This document shows, in pieces, positions 5,644-15,474 of a stretch of 22,450 nt of DNA; position 1 is the first letter of the stretch; every line of letters begins with the position of its first letter. The translations under genes and the position numbers were made by a program. The DNA lies in the IMG/VR virus record IMGVR_UViG_3300021090_000112, positions 1-22,450 of that record. One strand, 5' to 3'. Origin of the DNA: a virus. Under the pieces are notes generated by a model. It made no database searches. It was not told where the DNA came from and worked only from the letters and a program-made list of their open reading frames with translations.

Positions 5644-5858
5644 TGGCGATCACCGTCTACACGCGCACGCTGCCGAACCTGCTCCCGGCGACGCGCAGGG
5701 CAACGTATCGTCGCCTCATATTGCTGCTCGACCACATCGAAGGCTTCGGCATCGACCTGATTGGTTTCAGCATAGACATTCCGACGCGGGTGGTGACGAT
5801 CACGCTCACCGATCCGATCCCGGCGGATAATGTCGCGCACCTGGACCTCGGCCCGTGA
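5643..5858 (+). CDS. Small phage protein of unknown function, 71 aa
   Basis: A 71-residue protein starting at ATG 5643, which overlaps the stop of the previous gene by one base. It ends in a GTGA overlap with the next gene. A basic N-terminal half (RTLPNLLPATRRATYRRL) is followed by a short beta-rich tail. Codon use matches the neighbours, and the double overlap makes it a credible gene despite its length. No function can be read from the sequence. It may form part of the accessory virion set that runs from 3912 to 6736. Confidence 0.6.
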   Translation: MAITVYTRTLPNLLPATRRATYRRLILLLDHIEGFGIDLIGFSIDIPTRVVTITLTDPIPADNVAHLDLGP

Positions 5859-6736
5859 GCTCGTGGGTATGGCAGCCGCTGCTGCCGGCGGCGGCGCAGA
5901 GTCAGGCGGATTCCGGCGGCATCAACGCCGACCTGGCAGCGACGCTCGGCGCGCTGACGAGCTCGGCGGCAGGCACGCTGGCGATCCAGGCGGATCTCGC
6001 GAAAACGCTCGGCGCCGTCACCCTGTCGTCGGCGACGGTGCTGGCGATCCGGACGGACCTCGCGAAGACATTCGGGGCCGTCACGCTGTCGTCGGCGACG
6101 GTGCTGGCGATCCGGGCGGACCTCGCGAAGACGCTCGGAGAGCTGACGCTCTCCGCCACCGGCACGATCGCGGATCCCGGCGCCATCAACGCCGACATGG
6201 CAGCGACGCTCGGCGCGCTGACGAGCTCGGCGGCGGGCACGCTGGCGATCCGGGCGGACCTCGCGAAAACGCTCGGCGCCGTCACGCTGTCCTCGGCGAC
6301 GGTGCTGGCGATCCAGGCGGACCTCGCGAAAACGCTAGGGGCCGTCACCCTGTCCTCGGCGACGGTGCTGGCGATCCGGGCGGACCTCGCGAAGACGCTC
6401 GGCGCGCTGACGCTGTCCGCGACCGGCAATACCGGCGCGCCGCGCACGGCGAATCTCGCGGTCACGCTGGGGGCGTTGACGCTCGCGGCGGCCGCGAGCG
6501 TTCCCGCGGCGGAAGCGGCGGCCGTGGCGGGTGTGAGCGGCGGGGTGGTTTCCAAGAAGCGGCGCCGCAGGCGGCAGCCGATGTTCAGCATGCAGGACGC
6601 GATCATCCTGCCGCGGATCACCGCGAATCTCGCGGCCACGCTGGACGACATGAAGCTCGTGGCCGAATGCACGATAGCCGAATCGCTGAAGCAGACGCGG
6701 CGCCGCCGCACGATCACCCTGCTGATGATGGACTGA
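5855..6736 (+). CDS. Repeat protein with 21-residue units (possible virion fibre or decoration)
   Basis: A 293-residue protein starting at GTG 5855, in a GTGA overlap with the gene before it. From about residue 25 to 220 it consists of tandem 21-residue units of the form xDLAKTLGAVTLSSATVLAI, about nine copies. A last divergent copy, ANLAATLDDMKL, sits near the C terminus after a basic linker (KKRRRRRQP). Units alternate with longer ones ending LSATGTIADPGAIN and LSATGNTGAPRT, so that four units make an 88-residue (264-bp) higher-order repeat present twice, from residues 26 and 114. Similar LxATLxxLTLSATG repeats are familiar in uncharacterised phage structural proteins. The strand-like repeats suggest an elongated beta-solenoid or fibre; that is inference. 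Confidence 0.7.
   Translation: MSSWVWQPLLPAAAQSQADSGGINADLAATLGALTSSAAGTLAIQADLAKTLGAVTLSSATVLAIRTDLAKTFGAVTLSSATVLAIRADLAKTLGELTLSATGTIADPGAINADMAATLGALTSSAAGTLAIRADLAKTLGAVTLSSATVLAIQADLAKTLGAVTLSSATVLAIRADLAKTLGALTLSATGNTGAPRTANLAVTLGALTLAAAASVPAAEAAAVAGVSGGVVSKKRRRRRQPMFSMQDAIILPRITANLAATLDDMKLVAECTIAESLKQTRRRRTITLLMMD
5930..6457 (+). repeat. Tandem 63-bp repeats with a duplicated 264-bp higher-order unit
   Basis: The coding repeat is also strong at DNA level. The block beginning GACCTGGCAGCGACGCTC at 5930 recurs, almost unchanged, 264 bases later at 6194. Inside each block are three 63-bp units and one 75-bp unit. The near identity of third codon positions points to recent duplication by recombination or slippage rather than protein-level selection alone. 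All unit lengths are multiples of three, so copy-number change keeps the frame. Confidence 0.9.
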
Positions 6737-6738
6737 AA

Positions 6739-6760
6739 TACTGAGTGCTCAGTGCCGAGT
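6739..6760 (+). repeat. Degenerate GTGCTGA-type heptamer copies
   Basis: Immediately after the stop of the repeat protein lie about three imperfect heptamers (ACTGAGT, GCTCAGT, GCCGAGT). They match the 7-bp family found at gene junctions between 11232 and 16933. This is the only member before the cargo block and it abuts a terminator hairpin. Confidence 0.6.
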
Positions 6761-9769: not shown

Positions 9770-9797
9770 TTGACGCCCTATGCCATAATGGCATAGT
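9770..9797 (+). promoter_or_regulatory. Sigma70-like promoter
   Basis: TTGACG (9770-9775, five of six matches to the -35 consensus) is followed after 16 bases by CATAGT (9792-9797, four of six matches to -10). It sits in the 81-base gap between the DUF115-like gene and the ATG at 9846. It would start an independent transcript for the cassette that ends at 11202. Confidence 0.5.
9778..9796. promoter_or_regulatory. 19-bp palindromic operator candidate
   Basis: CTATGCCATAATGGCATAG has perfect 9-bp arms around one central A. It fills the spacer and most of the -10 element of the promoter at 9770-9797, the classic position for a repressor. The 59-residue XRE-like protein encoded at the end of the same cassette (10967-11146) is the obvious candidate ligand; that link is inference. 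Confidence 0.65.
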
Positions 9798-9845
9798 CTA
9801 TACGCAGAGCCGTGGCATGGTGCCGTGGCAGTTGTGGAGGGTGTC

Positions 9846-10469
9846 ATGAAGAAAGTCCAGTCAGCACAGGTGCGTCAAGAGGGTATCCGTTTCATCGAAG
9901 TGGTTCTGCGCGGCAAACCGGGGTCGTTGCTGGTGGTTCATTCATTCAACGAGAAGGCGAAGCAGGAGATTCGCGACAAGCAGCAGAAGAAGGCGAAGAA
10001 GGCGAAAAGCGAGCGGGTGCCGACGGAGGAATTCAAGGCGTCCCGTTATCTTGATGCCGAGGGGCGGGAGTGCGTCCCGGTCACTGCCCTAAAGAAGGCG
10101 ATCATTTCGGCGGCAACCGCGTTCGACGATCTGACCAAGGTGGCGCTGCGGCAGGCGCTGTTCGTCGACCCGAGCGAGAACCCGGGCGGGTCGTTGGTGC
10201 CGATCGAGAAGCATAGCGGGAAGCCTGCCGTCGGCGTGATGCGCGAAGATGCCGTGACCATTGGTATCAACACCCGTGGCCTCGCGTATCGTCCCGCCTA
10301 CGATGAATGGCAGCTTCGGGTGAAGGTGGAATTCAATCCTCGGCTTGTGAGCGAGGAGCAGTTGCTTGCCCTGATCGACCAGGCGGGATGGGGCGTCGGC
10401 ATCTGCGAAGGCCGCCCGGAACGCAGCAGTGCGCTCGGTTGGGGGAGGTTTGAAAGGATCGCCGCATAG
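9846..10469 (+). CDS. Phage protein of unknown function, 207 aa, with conserved G-x-RP...GxF C terminus
   Basis: A 207-residue protein starting at ATG 9846 with GGAGG at 9836-9840. An upstream in-frame GTG at 9825 precedes that ribosome site and was rejected. The N-terminal third is Lys-rich (KAKQEIRDKQQKKAKKAKSE) and suggests nucleic-acid contact. The C-terminal half reads GLAYRPAYDEWQLRVKVEFN, SEEQLLALIDQAGWGVGICEGRP and SALGWGRFE. This RPxxxxW, VGxxxxRP and GxGxFE pattern resembles a widespread family of uncharacterised phage proteins often found near recombination genes, with a possible ferredoxin-like (RAMP-like) fold; that family memory is unverified. It has its own promoter and operator and is followed by a G-rich pentamer array, so it may act on that array or its transcript (inference). 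Confidence 0.75.
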   Translation: MKKVQSAQVRQEGIRFIEVVLRGKPGSLLVVHSFNEKAKQEIRDKQQKKAKKAKSERVPTEEFKASRYLDAEGRECVPVTALKKAIISAATAFDDLTKVALRQALFVDPSENPGGSLVPIEKHSGKPAVGVMREDAVTIGINTRGLAYRPAYDEWQLRVKVEFNPRLVSEEQLLALIDQAGWGVGICEGRPERSSALGWGRFERIAA

Positions 10470-10966
10470 TTCGGCAAGACCGGTTAGGCGGGGTCGGGTC
10501 AGGCGCGATATAGCGAGGCTTGGCCCGGTTCGGCACGGCAGGAGTGGCGAGGCAAGGCGTGACGAGGCACTGTGCAGCTTGGCGGGGCGGAGCTCAGCAA
10601 GGCAGGCAAGGCCAGGCATAGTCAGGATTGGCCAGGAAGGCTCAGCGCGGCAGGCTCGGCATGGCGCTGCAAGGCGCGGTGTGGCGGGGTCAAGCTCGGT
10701 AAGGGTGGGGATCGGCAAGGCAGGTATGGCTAGGCTAGGCCGGGCGGGGTGAGGTATGGTCTGGTGTGGTAAGGCAGGCGAGGCGAGGCATGGTCTAGCC
10801 TGGCACGGTGAGGCGCAGCTCGGTAAGACAGGCGAGGTATTGTGAGGCCCGGTGTGGCGAGGCGCTCCATAGTAGAGCGCTGCTCGGTCCGGTAAGGTAA
10901 GGCAGGATTGGCATGGCCGGGTGGTGTGAGGCTGTGTTTTGCGAGGTTTGATCTGGCAAGGCAGGC
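10470..10966 (+). repeat. Degenerate YNNGG pentamer array, about 500 bp, strongly G-skewed
   Basis: Between the stop at 10469 and the ATG at 10967 the + strand is a continuous series of five-base units ending in GG and usually starting with C or T. Units from 10720 to 10774 are in perfect register for 11 copies (for example tatgg, ctagg, cgggg, taagg). Elsewhere the register slips by one base. The minus strand reads CCNNR. In 10741-10800 I count 30 G against 10 C. Units differ from each other, so this is not a simple microsatellite. Five is not a multiple of three, and long ORFs on either strand here translate to junk periodic peptides. The array supplies AAGG before the downstream ATG. Regular GG tracts every five bases could stack as two-layer G-quadruplexes in RNA or single-stranded DNA. 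Confidence 0.9.
10862..10880. other. Hairpin inside the pentamer array
   Basis: GCGCTC (10862-10867) and GAGCGC (10875-10880) form a 6-bp stem with a seven-base loop CATAGTA. It is the one place where the G-rich pentamer rhythm is clearly broken. No T-run follows, so it is not a standard terminator. It could be a structural landmark of an RNA made from the array. Confidence 0.5.
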
Positions 10967-11146
10967 ATGGAAGGGGCAGAACTCAAAGCGCTGCGCAAGA
11001 AACTCGGCCTGTCTCTCGCCCAAGCGGCGCGACAGGTCGAGGTGTCGCCGCGCACGTGGGCGCGCTGGGAGGCTGGAGATCAACCTATACCGGAAGGTGC
11101 GATGAAGCTGTTCCGGATTTTGAACAAGCTCGAAAAAGTCAAGTAA
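10967..11146 (+). CDS. XRE-type helix-turn-helix protein, 59 aa
   Basis: A 59-residue ORF starting at ATG 10967 and ending TAA at 11144-11146. It reads ELKALRKKLGLSLAQAARQVEVSPRTWARWEAGDQPIP, a complete Cro/CI-type five-helix HTH core: LGLSLAQAARQVEVSPRTWARWE covers the turn and recognition helix, and EAGDxxIP is the usual boundary before helix 5. The ribosome site AAGG is provided by the last pentamers of the preceding array. It lies alone between the array and a terminator, at the 3' end of a cassette whose promoter carries a 19-bp palindrome. It is therefore a likely autoregulatory repressor (inference). Its small size is normal for single-domain XRE regulators. Confidence 0.85.
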   Translation: MEGAELKALRKKLGLSLAQAARQVEVSPRTWARWEAGDQPIPEGAMKLFRILNKLEKVK

Positions 11147-11171
11147 CCGGTTAAGTTCACACGATCACTCG

Positions 11172-11202
11172 AACGGCGCTCGATTGGGCGCCGTTTTCTT
11201 TT
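11172..11202 (+). terminator. Rho-independent terminator after the HTH gene
   Basis: AACGGCGC (11172-11179) pairs with GCGCCGTT (11188-11195) around an eight-base loop, and a T-rich tail (TTTTCTTTT, 11194-11202) follows. It closes the transcription unit that starts at the promoter at 9770 and separates it from the cargo genes. Confidence 0.85.
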
Positions 11203-11246: not shown

Positions 11247-12081
11247 GGAAAGAGCGTTTTGTCTCATCCGGAGCCAGCCCTGGTACCGGCGGGAGGCGTT
11301 CGAGCTCGGGCTGAAGCGCGCGGGTTTCGAGGTCCACGGCCATCGGGCGGCGTCGTTCGCGGCGGGCGATGTGCTGGTGATCTGGAACCGCTACGGCGAG
11401 ATGCACGATCTCGCCCGGGCGGCGGAGCGCGCCGGCGCGCGGGTGATCGTCGCCGAGAACGGCTACCTGGGCTGCGGCGGCGGGGTGCCGAAGTTCCAGG
11501 TGCACCCGAGGGGCCCCGAGGCCGGGCATTACTACGCCGTGGCGCTCGGCGGGCACAACGGCAGCGGCACCTGGCCCGAGGGCGGGCCGGAGCGCTTCGA
11601 GCGGCTCGGTGTCGAGCTCAAGCCCTGGCGCGAAGTGAACCACGAATCACGAATCACGAATCACGTTCTGGTTTGCCCGAGCCGCAGCTTCGGGCGGCCG
11701 GACCTGATCATGCGCCATACCTGGGCGGAAGAGACGGCCAGGCGGCTGCGGGAGCTGACGCGGCGCGAAGTGAGGATACGGGCGCACCCCGGCAACGATG
11801 CGCCCAAGCGGCCCCTGGCGGCGGACCTGGCGGGGGCGTGGGTGGTGGTGATATGGGCCTCGAGCGCCGGGGTGCACGCGCTGGCGGCGGGGATCCCGGT
11901 GATCTGCGCCGCGCCGCGCTGGATTCTCAAGGGCGCGGCGGGGGGGCGGCTGGAAGAGGTCGAGAATCCGCCGCTGCCCGAGCGCCTGCCGCACTTTCAG
12001 CGGCTGGCGTGGGCGCAGTGGACTCTCTCGGAAATCGAGAGCGGAGAGGCGTTTAGGAAGCTGCTGAGTGCCGAGTGCTGA
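11245..12081 (+). CDS. Glycosyltransferase-like phage protein, copy A, with an in-frame heptamer linker
   Basis: A 278-residue protein with GTG start at 11245. The N-terminal half has NRYGEMHDLARAAERAGARVIVAENGYLG and HYYAVALGGHNGSGTWP. The C-terminal half has WVVVIWASSAGVHALAAGIPVICAAPRW and FQRLAWAQWTLSEIESG, a GT-B-like nucleotide-sugar fold pattern. It is related to the protein at 15485-16291 (CWCVITGHSNVAVEALLAGIPAFV and ASLAYGQFTLEEI). Between the halves, residues 132-140 (NHESRITNH) are encoded by three tandem CACGAAT heptamers, exactly where the paralog has an unrelated linker (STCPGQADRR). The last residues LSAEC come from GTGCTGA-type repeats that also supply the stop. Gain or loss of one 7-bp unit would shift the frame. 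Precise donor and acceptor are unknown. Confidence 0.65.
   Translation: MERAFCLIRSQPWYRREAFELGLKRAGFEVHGHRAASFAAGDVLVIWNRYGEMHDLARAAERAGARVIVAENGYLGCGGGVPKFQVHPRGPEAGHYYAVALGGHNGSGTWPEGGPERFERLGVELKPWREVNHESRITNHVLVCPSRSFGRPDLIMRHTWAEETARRLRELTRREVRIRAHPGNDAPKRPLAADLAGAWVVVIWASSAGVHALAAGIPVICAAPRWILKGAAGGRLEEVENPPLPERLPHFQRLAWAQWTLSEIESGEAFRKLLSAEC
11641..11665 (+). repeat. CACGAAT tandem heptamers inside a coding gene
   Basis: Three perfect CACGAAT units (11641-11661) plus a partial CACG lie in frame in the glycosyltransferase-like gene at 11245. Three units (21 bases) encode the seven-residue period NHESRIT. The same heptamer recurs at 13450-13484. Confidence 0.9.
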
Positions 12082-12082
12082 G
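12062..12082 (+). repeat. GTGCTGA heptamers at a gene junction
   Basis: TGCTGA, GTGCCGA and GTGCTGA follow one another and provide the SAEC codons and TGA stop of the gene ending at 12081. One base then separates the array from the ATG of the next gene at 12083. Confidence 0.85.
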
Positions 12083-12667
12083 ATGGCCGACCGCTGGTTC
12101 AAGATCAAGGGGCAGGCGAAGGGCGACCGCACGCTGGAGGAGCAGATGACGGGTCTGCAACCGGCGCTGGCCGGGACGCCCGGCCGCAGCGTGCTCGACC
12201 TGGGCTGCGCGGAGGGGCTGATCGGGCGCGAGTTCGCGCGCGCGGGCGCGGCGGCGGTGCACGGAGTGGAAATGCAGGAGCGCCACCTCATCATCGCGCG
12301 CGAGCTGTGCGCGGGGCTTCCCATGACGTTTCAGTGCGCGGACCTGGACGAGATGGCGGCGCGGGACAGCGCGCTGCCGCCGCGCTACGACATCGTGCTG
12401 GCGCTGGCCGTGCTGCACAAGCTCTTTGCCCCGGAGAACGGAGCCCGGTTCTGCGCCCGCGCGAGCCGCAGCCTGGTGGTGGTCCGCCTGCCGGCCAACA
12501 GCGAGGCGAACCGCGGCATCCTGCGCAGCAAGCACAACCCGGCGGTCAGCTGCGACCTGACCGCGGTGATGACGAAGAATGGCTTCGCCCTCGAGCGCAC
12601 GCTGCCGGGCCCGCGGCAGGAGCCGGTGCAGTACTGGCGCAGATCAGTGCTGAGTGCTGAGTGCTGA
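12083..12667 (+). CDS. Class I SAM-dependent methyltransferase-like protein
   Basis: A 194-residue protein with ATG at 12083; an in-frame GTG at 12068 lies inside the heptamer repeat and was rejected. The Rossmann methyltransferase signature is clear. Motif I is VLDLGCAEGLIG (37-48), the acidic end of strand 2 is in VHGVEMQERH, motif III is in FQCADLDEM, and motif IV is YDIVLALAVLHKL. The C-terminal substrate part (about 60 residues) is short. It ends LSAEC, encoded by the GTGCTGA array. It resembles small-molecule or sugar methyltransferases more than DNA methylases, since no DPPY or PCQ motif is seen. Sitting among glycosyltransferase-like genes, it may O-methylate a glycan (inference). Confidence 0.8.
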   Translation: MADRWFKIKGQAKGDRTLEEQMTGLQPALAGTPGRSVLDLGCAEGLIGREFARAGAAAVHGVEMQERHLIIARELCAGLPMTFQCADLDEMAARDSALPPRYDIVLALAVLHKLFAPENGARFCARASRSLVVVRLPANSEANRGILRSKHNPAVSCDLTAVMTKNGFALERTLPGPRQEPVQYWRRSVLSAEC

Positions 12668-12700
12668 GTGCTGAGAGCTGAGAGCTGAGTGCTGAGTGCG
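12647..12700 (+). repeat. GTGCTGA tandem heptamer array, nearly eight copies
   Basis: Units run GTGCTGA four times (12647-12674), GAGCTGA twice (12675-12688), GTGCTGA (12689-12695) and a partial GTGCG. The array spans the stop of the methyltransferase gene (12665-12667) and ends directly before ATG 12701. Seven bases per unit means a TGA is met within 21 bases in any frame. Confidence 0.95.
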
Positions 12701-13492
12701 ATGGGTATCGGGGACGAGTTGATGCTCGCGGGCGAAGCGAAGCGCCGGGCCGCCGGGACCGCGCGCCGCTACCGGATGCTCGACAAGTTCGGGCAACCGC
12801 GCTGGCATTTCGTCTGGGACCGCTGCGCCCACGTCGCGAAGCCCGGCGAGCCGTGCGACGGCGAGATCGGATTTTCCGCCGGCAAGCGGCCCTACATGGT
12901 GGACGTCAAGCTCGACCGCTACAGCTTCAGGGAATACGCGCCGGCGCCCGCCGAATTTCAACTGGGGCCGCAAGCGCAGAGTTTCTCGAAGCTGACGAAG
13001 GGTTGCATCGTCTTCAACCCGACGATCAAGCACAAGGCGAGCCCCAACAAGCAGTGGGGGCTGGAGAACTGGAAGCGGCTGATCGCGCTGGGGCGCGAAT
13101 TCCGCTGGGTGCAGATCGGCGCCGCCGCGCTGCTGCGGATCCGGGGCGCGGAGGAGATCCCGACGTTCAACTTCTGGGATGCGTGCGGCGCGCTGGCCGG
13201 CGCGCGGGCGGCGGTGCTGCACGAAGGCGCGCTGCATCACGCCGCGGCGTCGACCGGCACGCTCTGCGTGGTGATCTACGGCGGCTTCATTTCGCCGCGC
13301 GTCACGGGCTATGCGGGCCAGGCGCCGCTCTACGTGGAATCGGAGCGCTGGCCCTTCGGCTGCGGGATGCGGGTGCCGTGCGGGCATTGCCGGGACGCGA
13401 TGGATCAAATCACGCCGGAGACGGTTTTGGGCGCGCTGCGGAGCCTTTTAATCACGAATCACGAATCACGAATCACGAATCACGCCGCATGA
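12701..13492 (+). CDS. GT9/heptosyltransferase-like phage protein
   Basis: A 263-residue protein starting at ATG 12701; GTG 12689 upstream lies in the heptamer array. It opens MGIGDELMLAGEAKRR, like the GxGD opening of family 9 glycosyltransferases. Later come IVFNPTIKHKASPNKQWGLENWKRLI, VLHEGALHHAAASTGTLCVVIYGG (172 onwards) and SPRVTGY, which match the GT9 pattern of a nucleotide-sugar site with an EGALHHAAA-type helix. Three cysteines (221, 227, 230) in CGMRVPCGHC may bind metal or form a local motif typical of these phage versions. The C-terminal tail ITNHESRITNHAA is encoded by CACGAAT heptamers. The stop overlaps the next start (ATGA). Likely transfers or modifies sugars; substrate unknown. 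Confidence 0.7.
   Translation: MGIGDELMLAGEAKRRAAGTARRYRMLDKFGQPRWHFVWDRCAHVAKPGEPCDGEIGFSAGKRPYMVDVKLDRYSFREYAPAPAEFQLGPQAQSFSKLTKGCIVFNPTIKHKASPNKQWGLENWKRLIALGREFRWVQIGAAALLRIRGAEEIPTFNFWDACGALAGARAAVLHEGALHHAAASTGTLCVVIYGGFISPRVTGYAGQAPLYVESERWPFGCGMRVPCGHCRDAMDQITPETVLGALRSLLITNHESRITNHAA
13450..13484 (+). repeat. CACGAAT tandem heptamer array at a gene end
   Basis: Four perfect CACGAAT units (13453-13480) flanked by partial units encode the C-terminal tail of the GT9-like protein. Its ATGA junction with the next gene comes five bases later. Confidence 0.95.
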
Positions 13493-14714: not shown

Positions 14715-15280
14715 TAACGGTGGCGTGCGTCGAGTGGGACAACTATCTCGGGCGCGCTGACGAATATATCCGCAAGCTGCAGGCGATGGTGCGGCGGCAC
14801 CTGGCACAGCCGCACCAGTTCTGCATCCTGCTGCCGGACGACAGCCTGCAGGGGTGGTGGAAGAAGCTGGCGCTGTTCAAGCCCGGCCGCTTCACCGGCC
14901 GGGTGGTCTATTTCGACCTCGATACTTTGATCGTCGGGCCGCTCGACGAACTGGTGAGCCACAAGGGCGCCGTGCACCTGTCCGATTGGGGTTGGGTGCG
15001 CAACGTGCATGCCGGCGGGACGTTGGTGTGGGACGCCGGCGAACGCGACCACCTGTGGAACGACTTCACGCCCGCCGTGACGCGGGCGTTTGCGAACGAC
15101 CAGGAATGGATGACGACGCTGAACTGCTGGGAGCGGCTGCCGCCGCATATCGTGCGCTCCTACCGCTATCACTGCAAGGCGGGGCCGCCGCCGGGGTGCA
15201 GCGTGGTGGCGTTTCACGGATCGCCCAAGATGCACGAACTGCCGGCGAATCATTGGGTGCATGAACACTGGCTTTTTTGA
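14711..15280 (+). CDS. GT8-like glycosyltransferase, 189 aa
   Basis: A 189-residue protein with GTG start at 14711, overlapping the previous stop. It has CVEWDNYLGRADEYIRKLQAM, then VVYFDLDTLIVGPLDEL with Asp69-x-Asp71, the DxD metal site of GT-A enzymes of the GT8 type, and WVRNVHAGGTLVWDAG and VAFHGSPKMHEL near the C terminus, where GT8 enzymes have HxxGxxKPW. An upstream in-frame start at 14651 lies within the epimerase gene and was rejected. Its TGA stop merges with heptamer repeats. Likely a small sugar transferase. Confidence 0.75.
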   Translation: MITVACVEWDNYLGRADEYIRKLQAMVRRHLAQPHQFCILLPDDSLQGWWKKLALFKPGRFTGRVVYFDLDTLIVGPLDELVSHKGAVHLSDWGWVRNVHAGGTLVWDAGERDHLWNDFTPAVTRAFANDQEWMTTLNCWERLPPHIVRSYRYHCKAGPPPGCSVVAFHGSPKMHELPANHWVHEHWLF

Positions 15281-15301
15281 GTGCTGAGTGCTGAGTGCCG
15301 A
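15278..15301 (+). repeat. GTGCTGA heptamers after the GT8-like gene
   Basis: The stop TGA is continued by GTGCTGA, GTGCTGA and GTGCCGA. The next plausible start is ATG 15311. The frame through the repeat would read MLSAEC, the same residues that end two neighbouring proteins. Confidence 0.9.
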
Positions 15302-15310
15302 GCGATATTA

Positions 15311-15469
15311 ATGTTTGACCTGCTTCTGATTCTCATGGGCGTGTTTCTGGGCATCGGCATCGAGCGAGACATCCTTCGCCCGCGAAGCATCCGTAATTCA
15401 CTGCTTCCAGACACCAAGGAAGATGGCGATGGCGGCACCCCACAACCACGGCCAGCTGCTGAGTGCTGA
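15311..15469 (+). CDS. Small membrane peptide, 52 aa (tentative)
   Basis: A 52-residue ORF starting at ATG 15311. It opens MFDLLLILMGVFLGIGIERD, a plausible single membrane helix of about 16 residues, and continues with a polar tail containing PDTKEDGDGGTPQPRPAAEC. The last residues and stop are made by GTGCTGA repeats. No clear ribosome site is seen (only GCGATATTA upstream), so translation is uncertain. It fits a general pattern of tiny phage membrane proteins but no function can be read. Confidence 0.4.
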   Translation: MFDLLLILMGVFLGIGIERDILRPRSIRNSLLPDTKEDGDGGTPQPRPAAEC

Positions 15470-15474
15470 GTGCC
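15456..15474 (+). repeat. GTGCTGA heptamers at a gene junction
   Basis: CTGCTGA, GTGCTGA and GTGCC follow one another. They give the stop of the small membrane ORF and lie about ten bases before the start of the next gene at 15485. Confidence 0.85.

What the first reader, a model, noticed from the sequence alone, without database searches (positions are those of the whole stretch)
10470..10966. Five-base-periodic YNNGG array of about 100 units with extreme G skew between two genes
A 497-bp stretch, in a genome where other genes nearly touch, is filled with non-identical pentamers ending in GG (complement CCNNR). Eleven consecutive units keep register at 10720-10774; 10741-10800 has 30 G and 10 C. 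Units vary in sequence but keep the GG spacing, so spacing and not sequence seems to be what is conserved. Possible roles, all inference: a noncoding RNA or ssDNA made of stacked two-layer G-quadruplexes (G2N3 repeats); a dense array of half-helical-turn protein sites for the adjacent Lys-rich 207-residue protein or the HTH protein; an RNA decoy rich in AGG-type anti-SD matches; or, on the minus strand, a C-rich Rho-loading track.
Basis: partly seen in the sequence, partly recalled or inferred. Interest (0 to 1): 0.85.

Follow-up and report, generated by a model that had tools for sequence, protein, structure and literature searches.

The report
Phage VIPR guide-RNA array and protein
The odd five-base rhythm is an array of about eight RNA guides that sits beside the CRISPR-like protein expected to carry them, a phage weapon of the newly described VIPR type that is thought to let one virus switch off genes of rival viruses.

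Summary
GG pairs spaced 5 nt apart number 57 against 17.8 expected (z = 11), nowhere else in the window. The array is not a standalone curiosity. Its upstream 207-aa gene encodes a RAMP protein with the Csm3/Cas7 fold (pLDDT 93.8, Z 12), homologous to the gene of phage SUSP1 that fits the published Vipr locus (E = 3e-43). All 10 relatives first found by protein search carry a same-strand GGNNN array beside the gene. This is a VIPR locus (preprint PMC13142463, 2026): vrRNAs of YNNGG repeats whose NN bases recognise DNA with a 1-nt skip. New here: the array is punctuated by a 4-nt unit, CAGG, which cuts it into about eight modules; this grammar marks a Vipr clade. Near-identical mycobacteriophages differ by whole CAGG-to-CAGG modules. 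One such module matches phage Che8's gene 14 at 19/20 NN bases, with every skipped base checked at codon position 3. No target of the window's own guides was found, and the clade's usual accessory gene is missing; an HTH gene completes the apparent operon. Member of a known kind; the punctuation may be undescribed.

The parts
9770..9797 (+). promoter-like TTGACG-16 nt-CATAGT upstream of vipr
   Evidence: consensus scan, 1 found against 0.4 expected; weak evidence by itself
9778..9796 (.). perfect 9+1+9 palindrome CTATGCCATAATGGCATAG overlapping the -10 hexamer: candidate operator
   Evidence: inverted repeat, 100%; occurs once in the window
9846..10469 (+). vipr: 207-aa RAMP protein, Csm3/Cas7 fold (phrog_4652); a GTG start at 9825 is also possible
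   Evidence: family profile hits the SUSP1 gene, E = 3e-43
10470..10966 (+). vrRNA array, about 105 YNNGG units in about eight modules
10480..10483 (+). tetramer CCGG, start of the first module
10484..10538 (+). guide module 1 (11 units): TA GG CG CA GC AT GA TT CC TC AC
10539..10542 (+). CAGG punctuation
10543..10602 (+). guide module 2 (12 units), ends YAAGG
10603..10606 (+). CAGG punctuation
10607..10650 (+). module 3 (6 pentamers + tetramer AAGG + 2 pentamers), irregular
10651..10654 (+). CAGG punctuation
10655..10720 (+). guide module 4 (9 units, a 6-nt unit, then 3 regular units), ends CAAGG
10721..10724 (+). CAGG punctuation
10725..10774 (+). guide module 5 (10 units): AT TA TA CG GG GA AT CT GT (AA)
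10775..10778 (+). CAGG punctuation
10779..10828 (+). guide module 6 (10 units): GA GA AT CT CT AC GA GC TC (AA)
10829..10832 (+). CAGG punctuation
10833..10902 (+). guide module 7 (14 units); holds a hairpin GCGCTC-CATAGTA-GAGCGC at 10862-10880 where GG is lost
   Evidence: hairpin z = -1.5, not decisive
10903..10906 (+). CAGG punctuation
10907..10961 (+). guide module 8 (11 units), 3' half partly degenerate and able to form a hairpin
10962..10965 (+). last CAGG, abutting the HTH start codon
10967..11146 (+). 59-aa HTH (XRE-type) gene: candidate autoregulator or accessory DNA-binding protein
11171..11196 (+). intrinsic terminator (11-pair stem, T run)

Best explanation
This is a phage-encoded VIPR locus. 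Promoter, vipr, guide array, HTH gene and terminator appear to form one transcription unit (9770-11196; inferred from sequence, not from RNA data). The transcript's GGY triplets are bound by Vipr subunits, one per pentamer. The two variable bases of each unit are left to pair with DNA, and one target base is skipped per unit. The 4-nt unit CAGG, always after a full pentamer, breaks the register; it marks where one guide ends and the next begins, giving about eight guides of roughly 9-14 units. Each guide-Vipr complex would sit on a gene of a competing phage or other mobile element and block its transcription. Shown here: the array, its modular punctuation, the RAMP fold, homology to the SUSP1 gene, the protein-array association, module turnover in relatives, one skip-rule match in the same clade. 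Known from the preprint for other family members: guide expression, RNP formation, skip-rule binding, repression. Inferred for this locus: expression, processing at CAGG, targets, regulation by the HTH protein.
For: GG lag-5 z = 11. AlphaFold model pLDDT 93.8; the best PDB matches are all Csm3/Cas7-type RAMPs, Z up to 12.0 over 153 residues. Family profile hits the SUSP1 gene at 28474-29061, E = 3e-43, flanked by one upstream and three downstream YNNGG arrays as the preprint describes. All 10 relatives first found by protein search have a same-strand array; 84 of 120 contigs fetched by the DNA pattern alone carry the gene. In 186 complete CAGG-bounded modules from 44 loci the NN bases are nearly information-free, while GG and Y are conserved; most modules have 7-12 pentamers, mode 10. 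CAGG punctuation clusters on the Vipr tree: 32 of 35 punctuated loci lie in one 41-row clade, SH-aLRT 96. Sister mycobacteriophages gain or lose whole modules. Quico module g2 matches Che8 gene 14 at 19/20 with a 1-nt skip; 0 of 1500 unit-order shuffles exceed 17; the skip base is codon position 3 at every position checked; the site is absent from Quico and sisters.
Against: No target was found for the window's own guides: exact 8-unit searches of five guides in IMG/VR (one gave no hit; extension of the other hits was at or near chance, 25-38% where pooled) and one 9-unit guide in GTDB genomes. The CAGG clade's usual accessory gene is absent from the window's subclade. No common 3' tail after each module, unlike SUSP1. 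GG fidelity is lower than in some relatives (0.73 against 0.83-0.96 in L127, L126, L118, L076 and L003, but the same as L125 and L066), so some modules may be decayed. The skip-rule match in the clade is a single case, and Che8 was one of few genomes tested.
Confidence: 0.92

Rival explanations
1. The locus is a decaying VIPR remnant: an inherited guide array and Vipr that no longer act, since the accessory gene is gone and several units have lost GG.
For: Accessory family absent from the window's subclade; GG fidelity 0.73; irregular modules 3, 4, 7 and 8.
Against: Vipr is intact with the conserved residues (R149, W155, G185, G200) and an excellent model. The whole unit, promoter-like site to terminator, is in place. 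Close relatives without the accessory gene still hold long arrays, 1.2 kb in L127. SUSP1-type repression needs only Vipr and guide; vap1 only enhances it (PMC13142463).
Confidence: 0.1
2. The array is a VIPR guide set used for the phage's own gene control (lysis/lysogeny or late-gene timing), not against competitors.
For: The unit carries a regulator gene and a candidate operator; it sits in the structural-gene region.
Against: No window guide matches its own contig outside the array at better than chance. In the clade the one match lies in another phage and not in the carrier or its sisters. The contig is a fragment, so self-targets elsewhere in the genome are not excluded.
Confidence: 0.06
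3. A structural nucleic acid: stacked two-layer G-quadruplexes or a protein-sequestering decoy, unrelated to targeting.
For: GG every 5 nt is compatible with two-layer quadruplexes.
Against: RNA fold not better than shuffles. The strict Csm3-fold partner, conserved Y, CAGG punctuation, module turnover and the skip-rule match are unexplained by it.
Confidence: 0.02
4. A degraded gene or low-complexity expansion.
For: It lies between genes and has no good ORF.
Against: Relatives show the same grammar, not an intact gene. A simple expansion would give near-identical units; here the NN positions are free while GG is kept.
Confidence: 0.01

Closest known systems
VIPR type II, Escherichia phage SUSP1 (PMC13142463)
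   Same: Homologous RAMP protein; YNNGG repeats with free NN; array beside the gene on the same strand; compact phage locus.
   Different: SUSP1 has separate vrRNAs each with a structured 3' tail plus vap1; the window has contiguous guides punctuated by CAGG, no common tail, no such accessory gene, and an HTH gene in the unit. On the tree SUSP1 lies outside the CAGG clade.
VIPR loci of Mycobacterium (Cheoctovirus) and Gordonia phages, phrog_4652
   Same: Same Vipr clade and same CAGG-punctuated arrays.
   Different: They carry the accessory family PLHxxFEWDD (phrog_15946 in Quico), and in the mycobacteriophages the array lies upstream of vipr and ends in a hairpin with a GCAA loop.
Class 1 CRISPR backbone proteins Csm3 / Cas7
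   Same: Same fold over the whole chain, glycine-rich loop.
   Different: About 12% identity; no CRISPR repeats or cas genes beside it; 5-nt guide period where CRISPR RAMPs disrupt pairing at every sixth position (preprint).
TRAP, trp RNA-binding attenuation protein (own knowledge)
   Same: RNA read in roughly 5-nt steps, one short motif per subunit.
   Different: Different fold and motif; considered before the structure was known and dropped.

Membership tests
VIPR | RAMP protein with RRM core and glycine-rich loop, homologous to Vipr | tested here: met
   Csm3-like fold, Z 12; family profile hits the SUSP1 gene at E = 3e-43. That this gene is the published Vipr is inferred from the locus layout.
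VIPR | adjacent RNA-coding array of alternating GGY / NN | tested here: met
VIPR | vrRNAs of 9-16 repeats | tested here: met
   Modules of 9-14 units, except irregular module 3; clade mode 10, range 7-16
VIPR | invariable structured 3' tail on each vrRNA | tested here: inconclusive
   No common tail after each module; CAGG and a preceding YAAGG recur; hairpins in modules 7 and 8 are not better than chance. The preprint says array architecture varies between types.
VIPR | vap accessory gene | tested here: inconclusive
   The clade's PLHxxFEWDD gene is absent; the HTH gene could serve, since some vaps are predicted DNA-binding proteins (PMC13142463)
VIPR | NN bases match targets with a 1-nt skip | tested here: inconclusive
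   Not found for the window's guides; found once in the same clade, Quico to Che8
VIPR | expressed small RNA co-purifying with Vipr | not testable with these tools
   needs RNA-seq and pull-down
CRISPR-Cas class 1 | CRISPR array with identical repeats, and cas genes | tested here: not met
   No identical repeats in the region; no cas family among the window proteins scanned (not every gene was scanned)
G-quadruplex / structural RNA element | fold more stable than shuffled sequence, or known RNA family | tested here: inconclusive
   Ordinary fold z = -1.2, but quadruplexes are not modelled by it; no Rfam family at its gathering score

The most novel reading that the evidence does not exclude
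VIPR arrays have a punctuation grammar of their own. In one Vipr clade a single 4-nt unit, CAGG, both ends one guide and starts the next by breaking the 5-nt register. Dozens of guides can then sit head to tail without tails or repeats and be gained or lost as cassettes. The window's subclade has shed the usual accessory gene and uses a minimal, probably self-regulated operon. The preprint's main text does not mention CAGG; its 'staggered arrays with overlapping vrRNAs' may or may not be this, and its supplement could not be read.
Probability: 0.45. Interest if true: 0.75.

Novelty: new member of a known kind. Interest (0 to 1): 0.62.

Why it matters
VIPR was reported only in 2026 as a possible forerunner of CRISPR, with the guide code worked out in one type. 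This locus and its relatives show how guides can be packed, separated and swapped in a different branch. They also give the CAGG branch a natural guide-target pair to test in named laboratory phages (Quico or Florinda against Che8 in M. smegmatis mc2 155). Module turnover between near-identical phages makes the open question of how new guides arise directly approachable.

Tried and rejected
Rfam scan: nothing at a family's gathering score. RNA fold of the whole array: not special. Target search for the window's guides: exact 8-unit skip-rule patterns for modules 2, 5, 6, 7 and 8 in IMG/VR, one 9-unit pattern (module 1) in GTDB contigs; module 5 had no hit, and extension of the other hits into the unused units was at or near chance. 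Module 2's extension was 38%, but several of its best hits are copies of one site. All-against-all test of 476 guides on 1.3 Mb of fetched loci: no excess for any skip length, as expected with unrelated phages. In the larger re-run the zero-mismatch hits at skip 3 are the Florinda array itself, which was left unmasked. NN composition against codon positions 1-2: only weakly best (r = 0.33), not used as evidence. Host identity: vipr has no close relative in GTDB contigs and terminase/capsid hits are spread over many hosts, so the host is unknown. The HTH gene as a conserved partner: only one other vipr locus (L022) has a similar gene. TRAP-like wrapping: dropped after the Csm3 fold was found. 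Literature: early searches found nothing relevant; the VIPR preprint came.

Full report
Observation. The stretch 10466-10980 holds 97 GG dinucleotides. Pairs 5 nt apart number 57 against 17.8 +/- 3.6 in dinucleotide-preserving shuffles (z = 11), with harmonics at 10, 15 and 20; no other part of the window is comparable. A chain parse gives about 105-109 units of consensus Y-N-N-G-G. The register is not uniform. At nine points a 4-nt unit replaces a pentamer, and seven of these are CAGG. In the window CAGG is preceded by YAAGG at six of the eight places listed (counting one TAAGA). The array is therefore about eight modules of mostly 9-14 pentamers, at 10484, 10543, 10607 (irregular), 10655, 10725, 10779, 10833 and 10907.

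Partner gene. The gene just upstream (ATG at 9846, 207 aa) belongs to phrog_4652, function unknown, and has no Pfam match. A 68-sequence alignment from window and fetched loci gave a model with mean pLDDT 93.8. Foldseek and VIA-align 2 return Csm3 and related Cas7-type RAMP subunits of CRISPR complexes (Z up to 12.0, 153 residues, 3.5 A). The invariant residues R149, W155, G185 and G200 include glycines of the C-terminal G-rich loop.

Association. Relatives were first sought by protein alone. All ten found that way and examined (phages LESphi2, Cy-LDV1, Quico and ODay, and six viral contigs), only about 30-35% identical in the named phages, carry a GGNNN array on the gene's strand beside it. 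The reverse search, by the DNA pattern alone, brought 120 viral contigs; 84 carry the gene. Over the combined set, 93 of 95 genes have a same-strand array, against 8 with one on the opposite strand.

What is known. A 2026 preprint (PMC13142463) describes VIPR: a phage RAMP protein, Vipr, and vrRNAs of 9-16 YNNGG repeats whose NN bases recognise double-stranded DNA with one target base skipped per unit, used against competing phages. That locus shows one upstream and three downstream arrays, as the preprint describes for the published Vipr; that the gene is the published one is inferred from this layout. The window locus is therefore a VIPR system.

Array grammar. Across 186 complete CAGG-to-CAGG modules from 44 loci, NN positions carry 0.01-0.29 bit, the GG positions 1.3-1.95 and the Y position 1.0-1.6; most modules have 7-12 pentamers, with a mode of 10. 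Of 350 clean 4-nt steps 236 are CAGG. On the Vipr tree 32 of 35 punctuated loci fall in one clade of 41 rows (SH-aLRT 96); SUSP1 lies outside it; the label needs 10 changes against 27.8 in shuffles. The tree is a quick one without bootstraps. The preprint's main text mentions 'staggered arrays with overlapping vrRNAs' but not CAGG, and its supplement could not be read, so priority for the punctuation is open.

Modules are units of change. Thirteen closely related mycobacteriophages share the locus. Their arrays differ by whole CAGG-bounded modules: ByChance lacks one that James and BobaPhett have, and Donkeykong has two more than Clifton and Pippy. The array ends in a conserved segment that folds as a hairpin with a GCAA loop.

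One target in the clade. Decoded with a 1-nt skip, module g2 of Quico and Florinda matches Che8 gene 14 (annotated hypothetical; it occupies the place of the tape-measure gene of Fruitloop), minus strand 10431-10460, at 19 of 20 bases. It is perfect over the first nine units, and the one miss lies in the last unit before CAGG. The skipped base is codon position 3 at every position checked. The other skip rules reach 13-17, and none of 1500 unit-order shuffles exceeds 17. The site is absent from Quico and the sister phages searched. It was the only such match among 17 guides tested on 0.77 Mb, so it supports the published code in this clade but is one case.

The window's unit. A promoter-like site (9770-9797) overlaps a perfect palindrome (9778-9796); vipr, the array, a 59-aa HTH gene whose start codon abuts the last CAGG, and an intrinsic terminator (11171-11196) follow. 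The accessory family common in the CAGG clade (23 of 35 loci) is absent from the window and its closest relatives. Autoregulation by the HTH protein is inference.

What failed. None of the window's guides gave a convincing target: five were searched exactly over eight units in IMG/VR and one over nine units in GTDB; one had no hit, and extension of the other hits was at or near chance. Exact search cannot see mismatched targets, and the host is unknown. GG fidelity is 0.73, about the same as L066 and L125 but below several relatives, so partial decay remains possible.

Verdict. It is a new member of a very recently described kind; the CAGG punctuation and the minimal operon are what may be new.

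Noticed in passing
window 11637-11665, 12062-12082, 12646-12699, 13450-13484, 15278-15302, 15457-15473: Two heptamer tandem repeats, rotations of TGAGTGC and of GAATCAC, recur in the stretch downstream of the VIPR unit, mostly near ORF ends and starts; TGAGTG joins a stop and a start codon.
   Followed up: partly
window 5906-6428: A 264-bp direct repeat (92%) with a 63-bp inner period inside the gene at 5830-6744. A 100% identical contig (L131) ends in it at base 6320.
   Followed up: no
L001 3125-4701 (LESphi2, P. aeruginosa LESB58): The phage LESphi2 carries a vipr homologue (P21_9), a following conserved gene (P21_8, phrog_5926) and arrays upstream, annotated only as hypothetical.
   Followed up: partly
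L003, L273-L284: At least thirteen mycobacteriophages annotated with hypothetical proteins at this place carry VIPR; in Quico the second gene is phrog_15946, and the arrays end in a GCAA hairpin.
   Followed up: yes
L127 3504-4750: A near relative of the window's vipr with a 1.2-kb array of about 25 CAGG-bounded guides on a 102-kb viral contig.
   Followed up: partly
L005, L009, L015, L028, L029, L033, L064, L080 and others: 36 of 120 contigs with GGC arrays show no vipr by my profile; many are short or cut, but some may hold more distant Vipr types or arrays acting without a nearby gene.
   Followed up: no
L098, L077, L116: A second, separate small group of CAGG-punctuated loci within the SUSP1-side half of the Vipr tree: a possible independent origin or transfer of the punctuation.
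   Followed up: no
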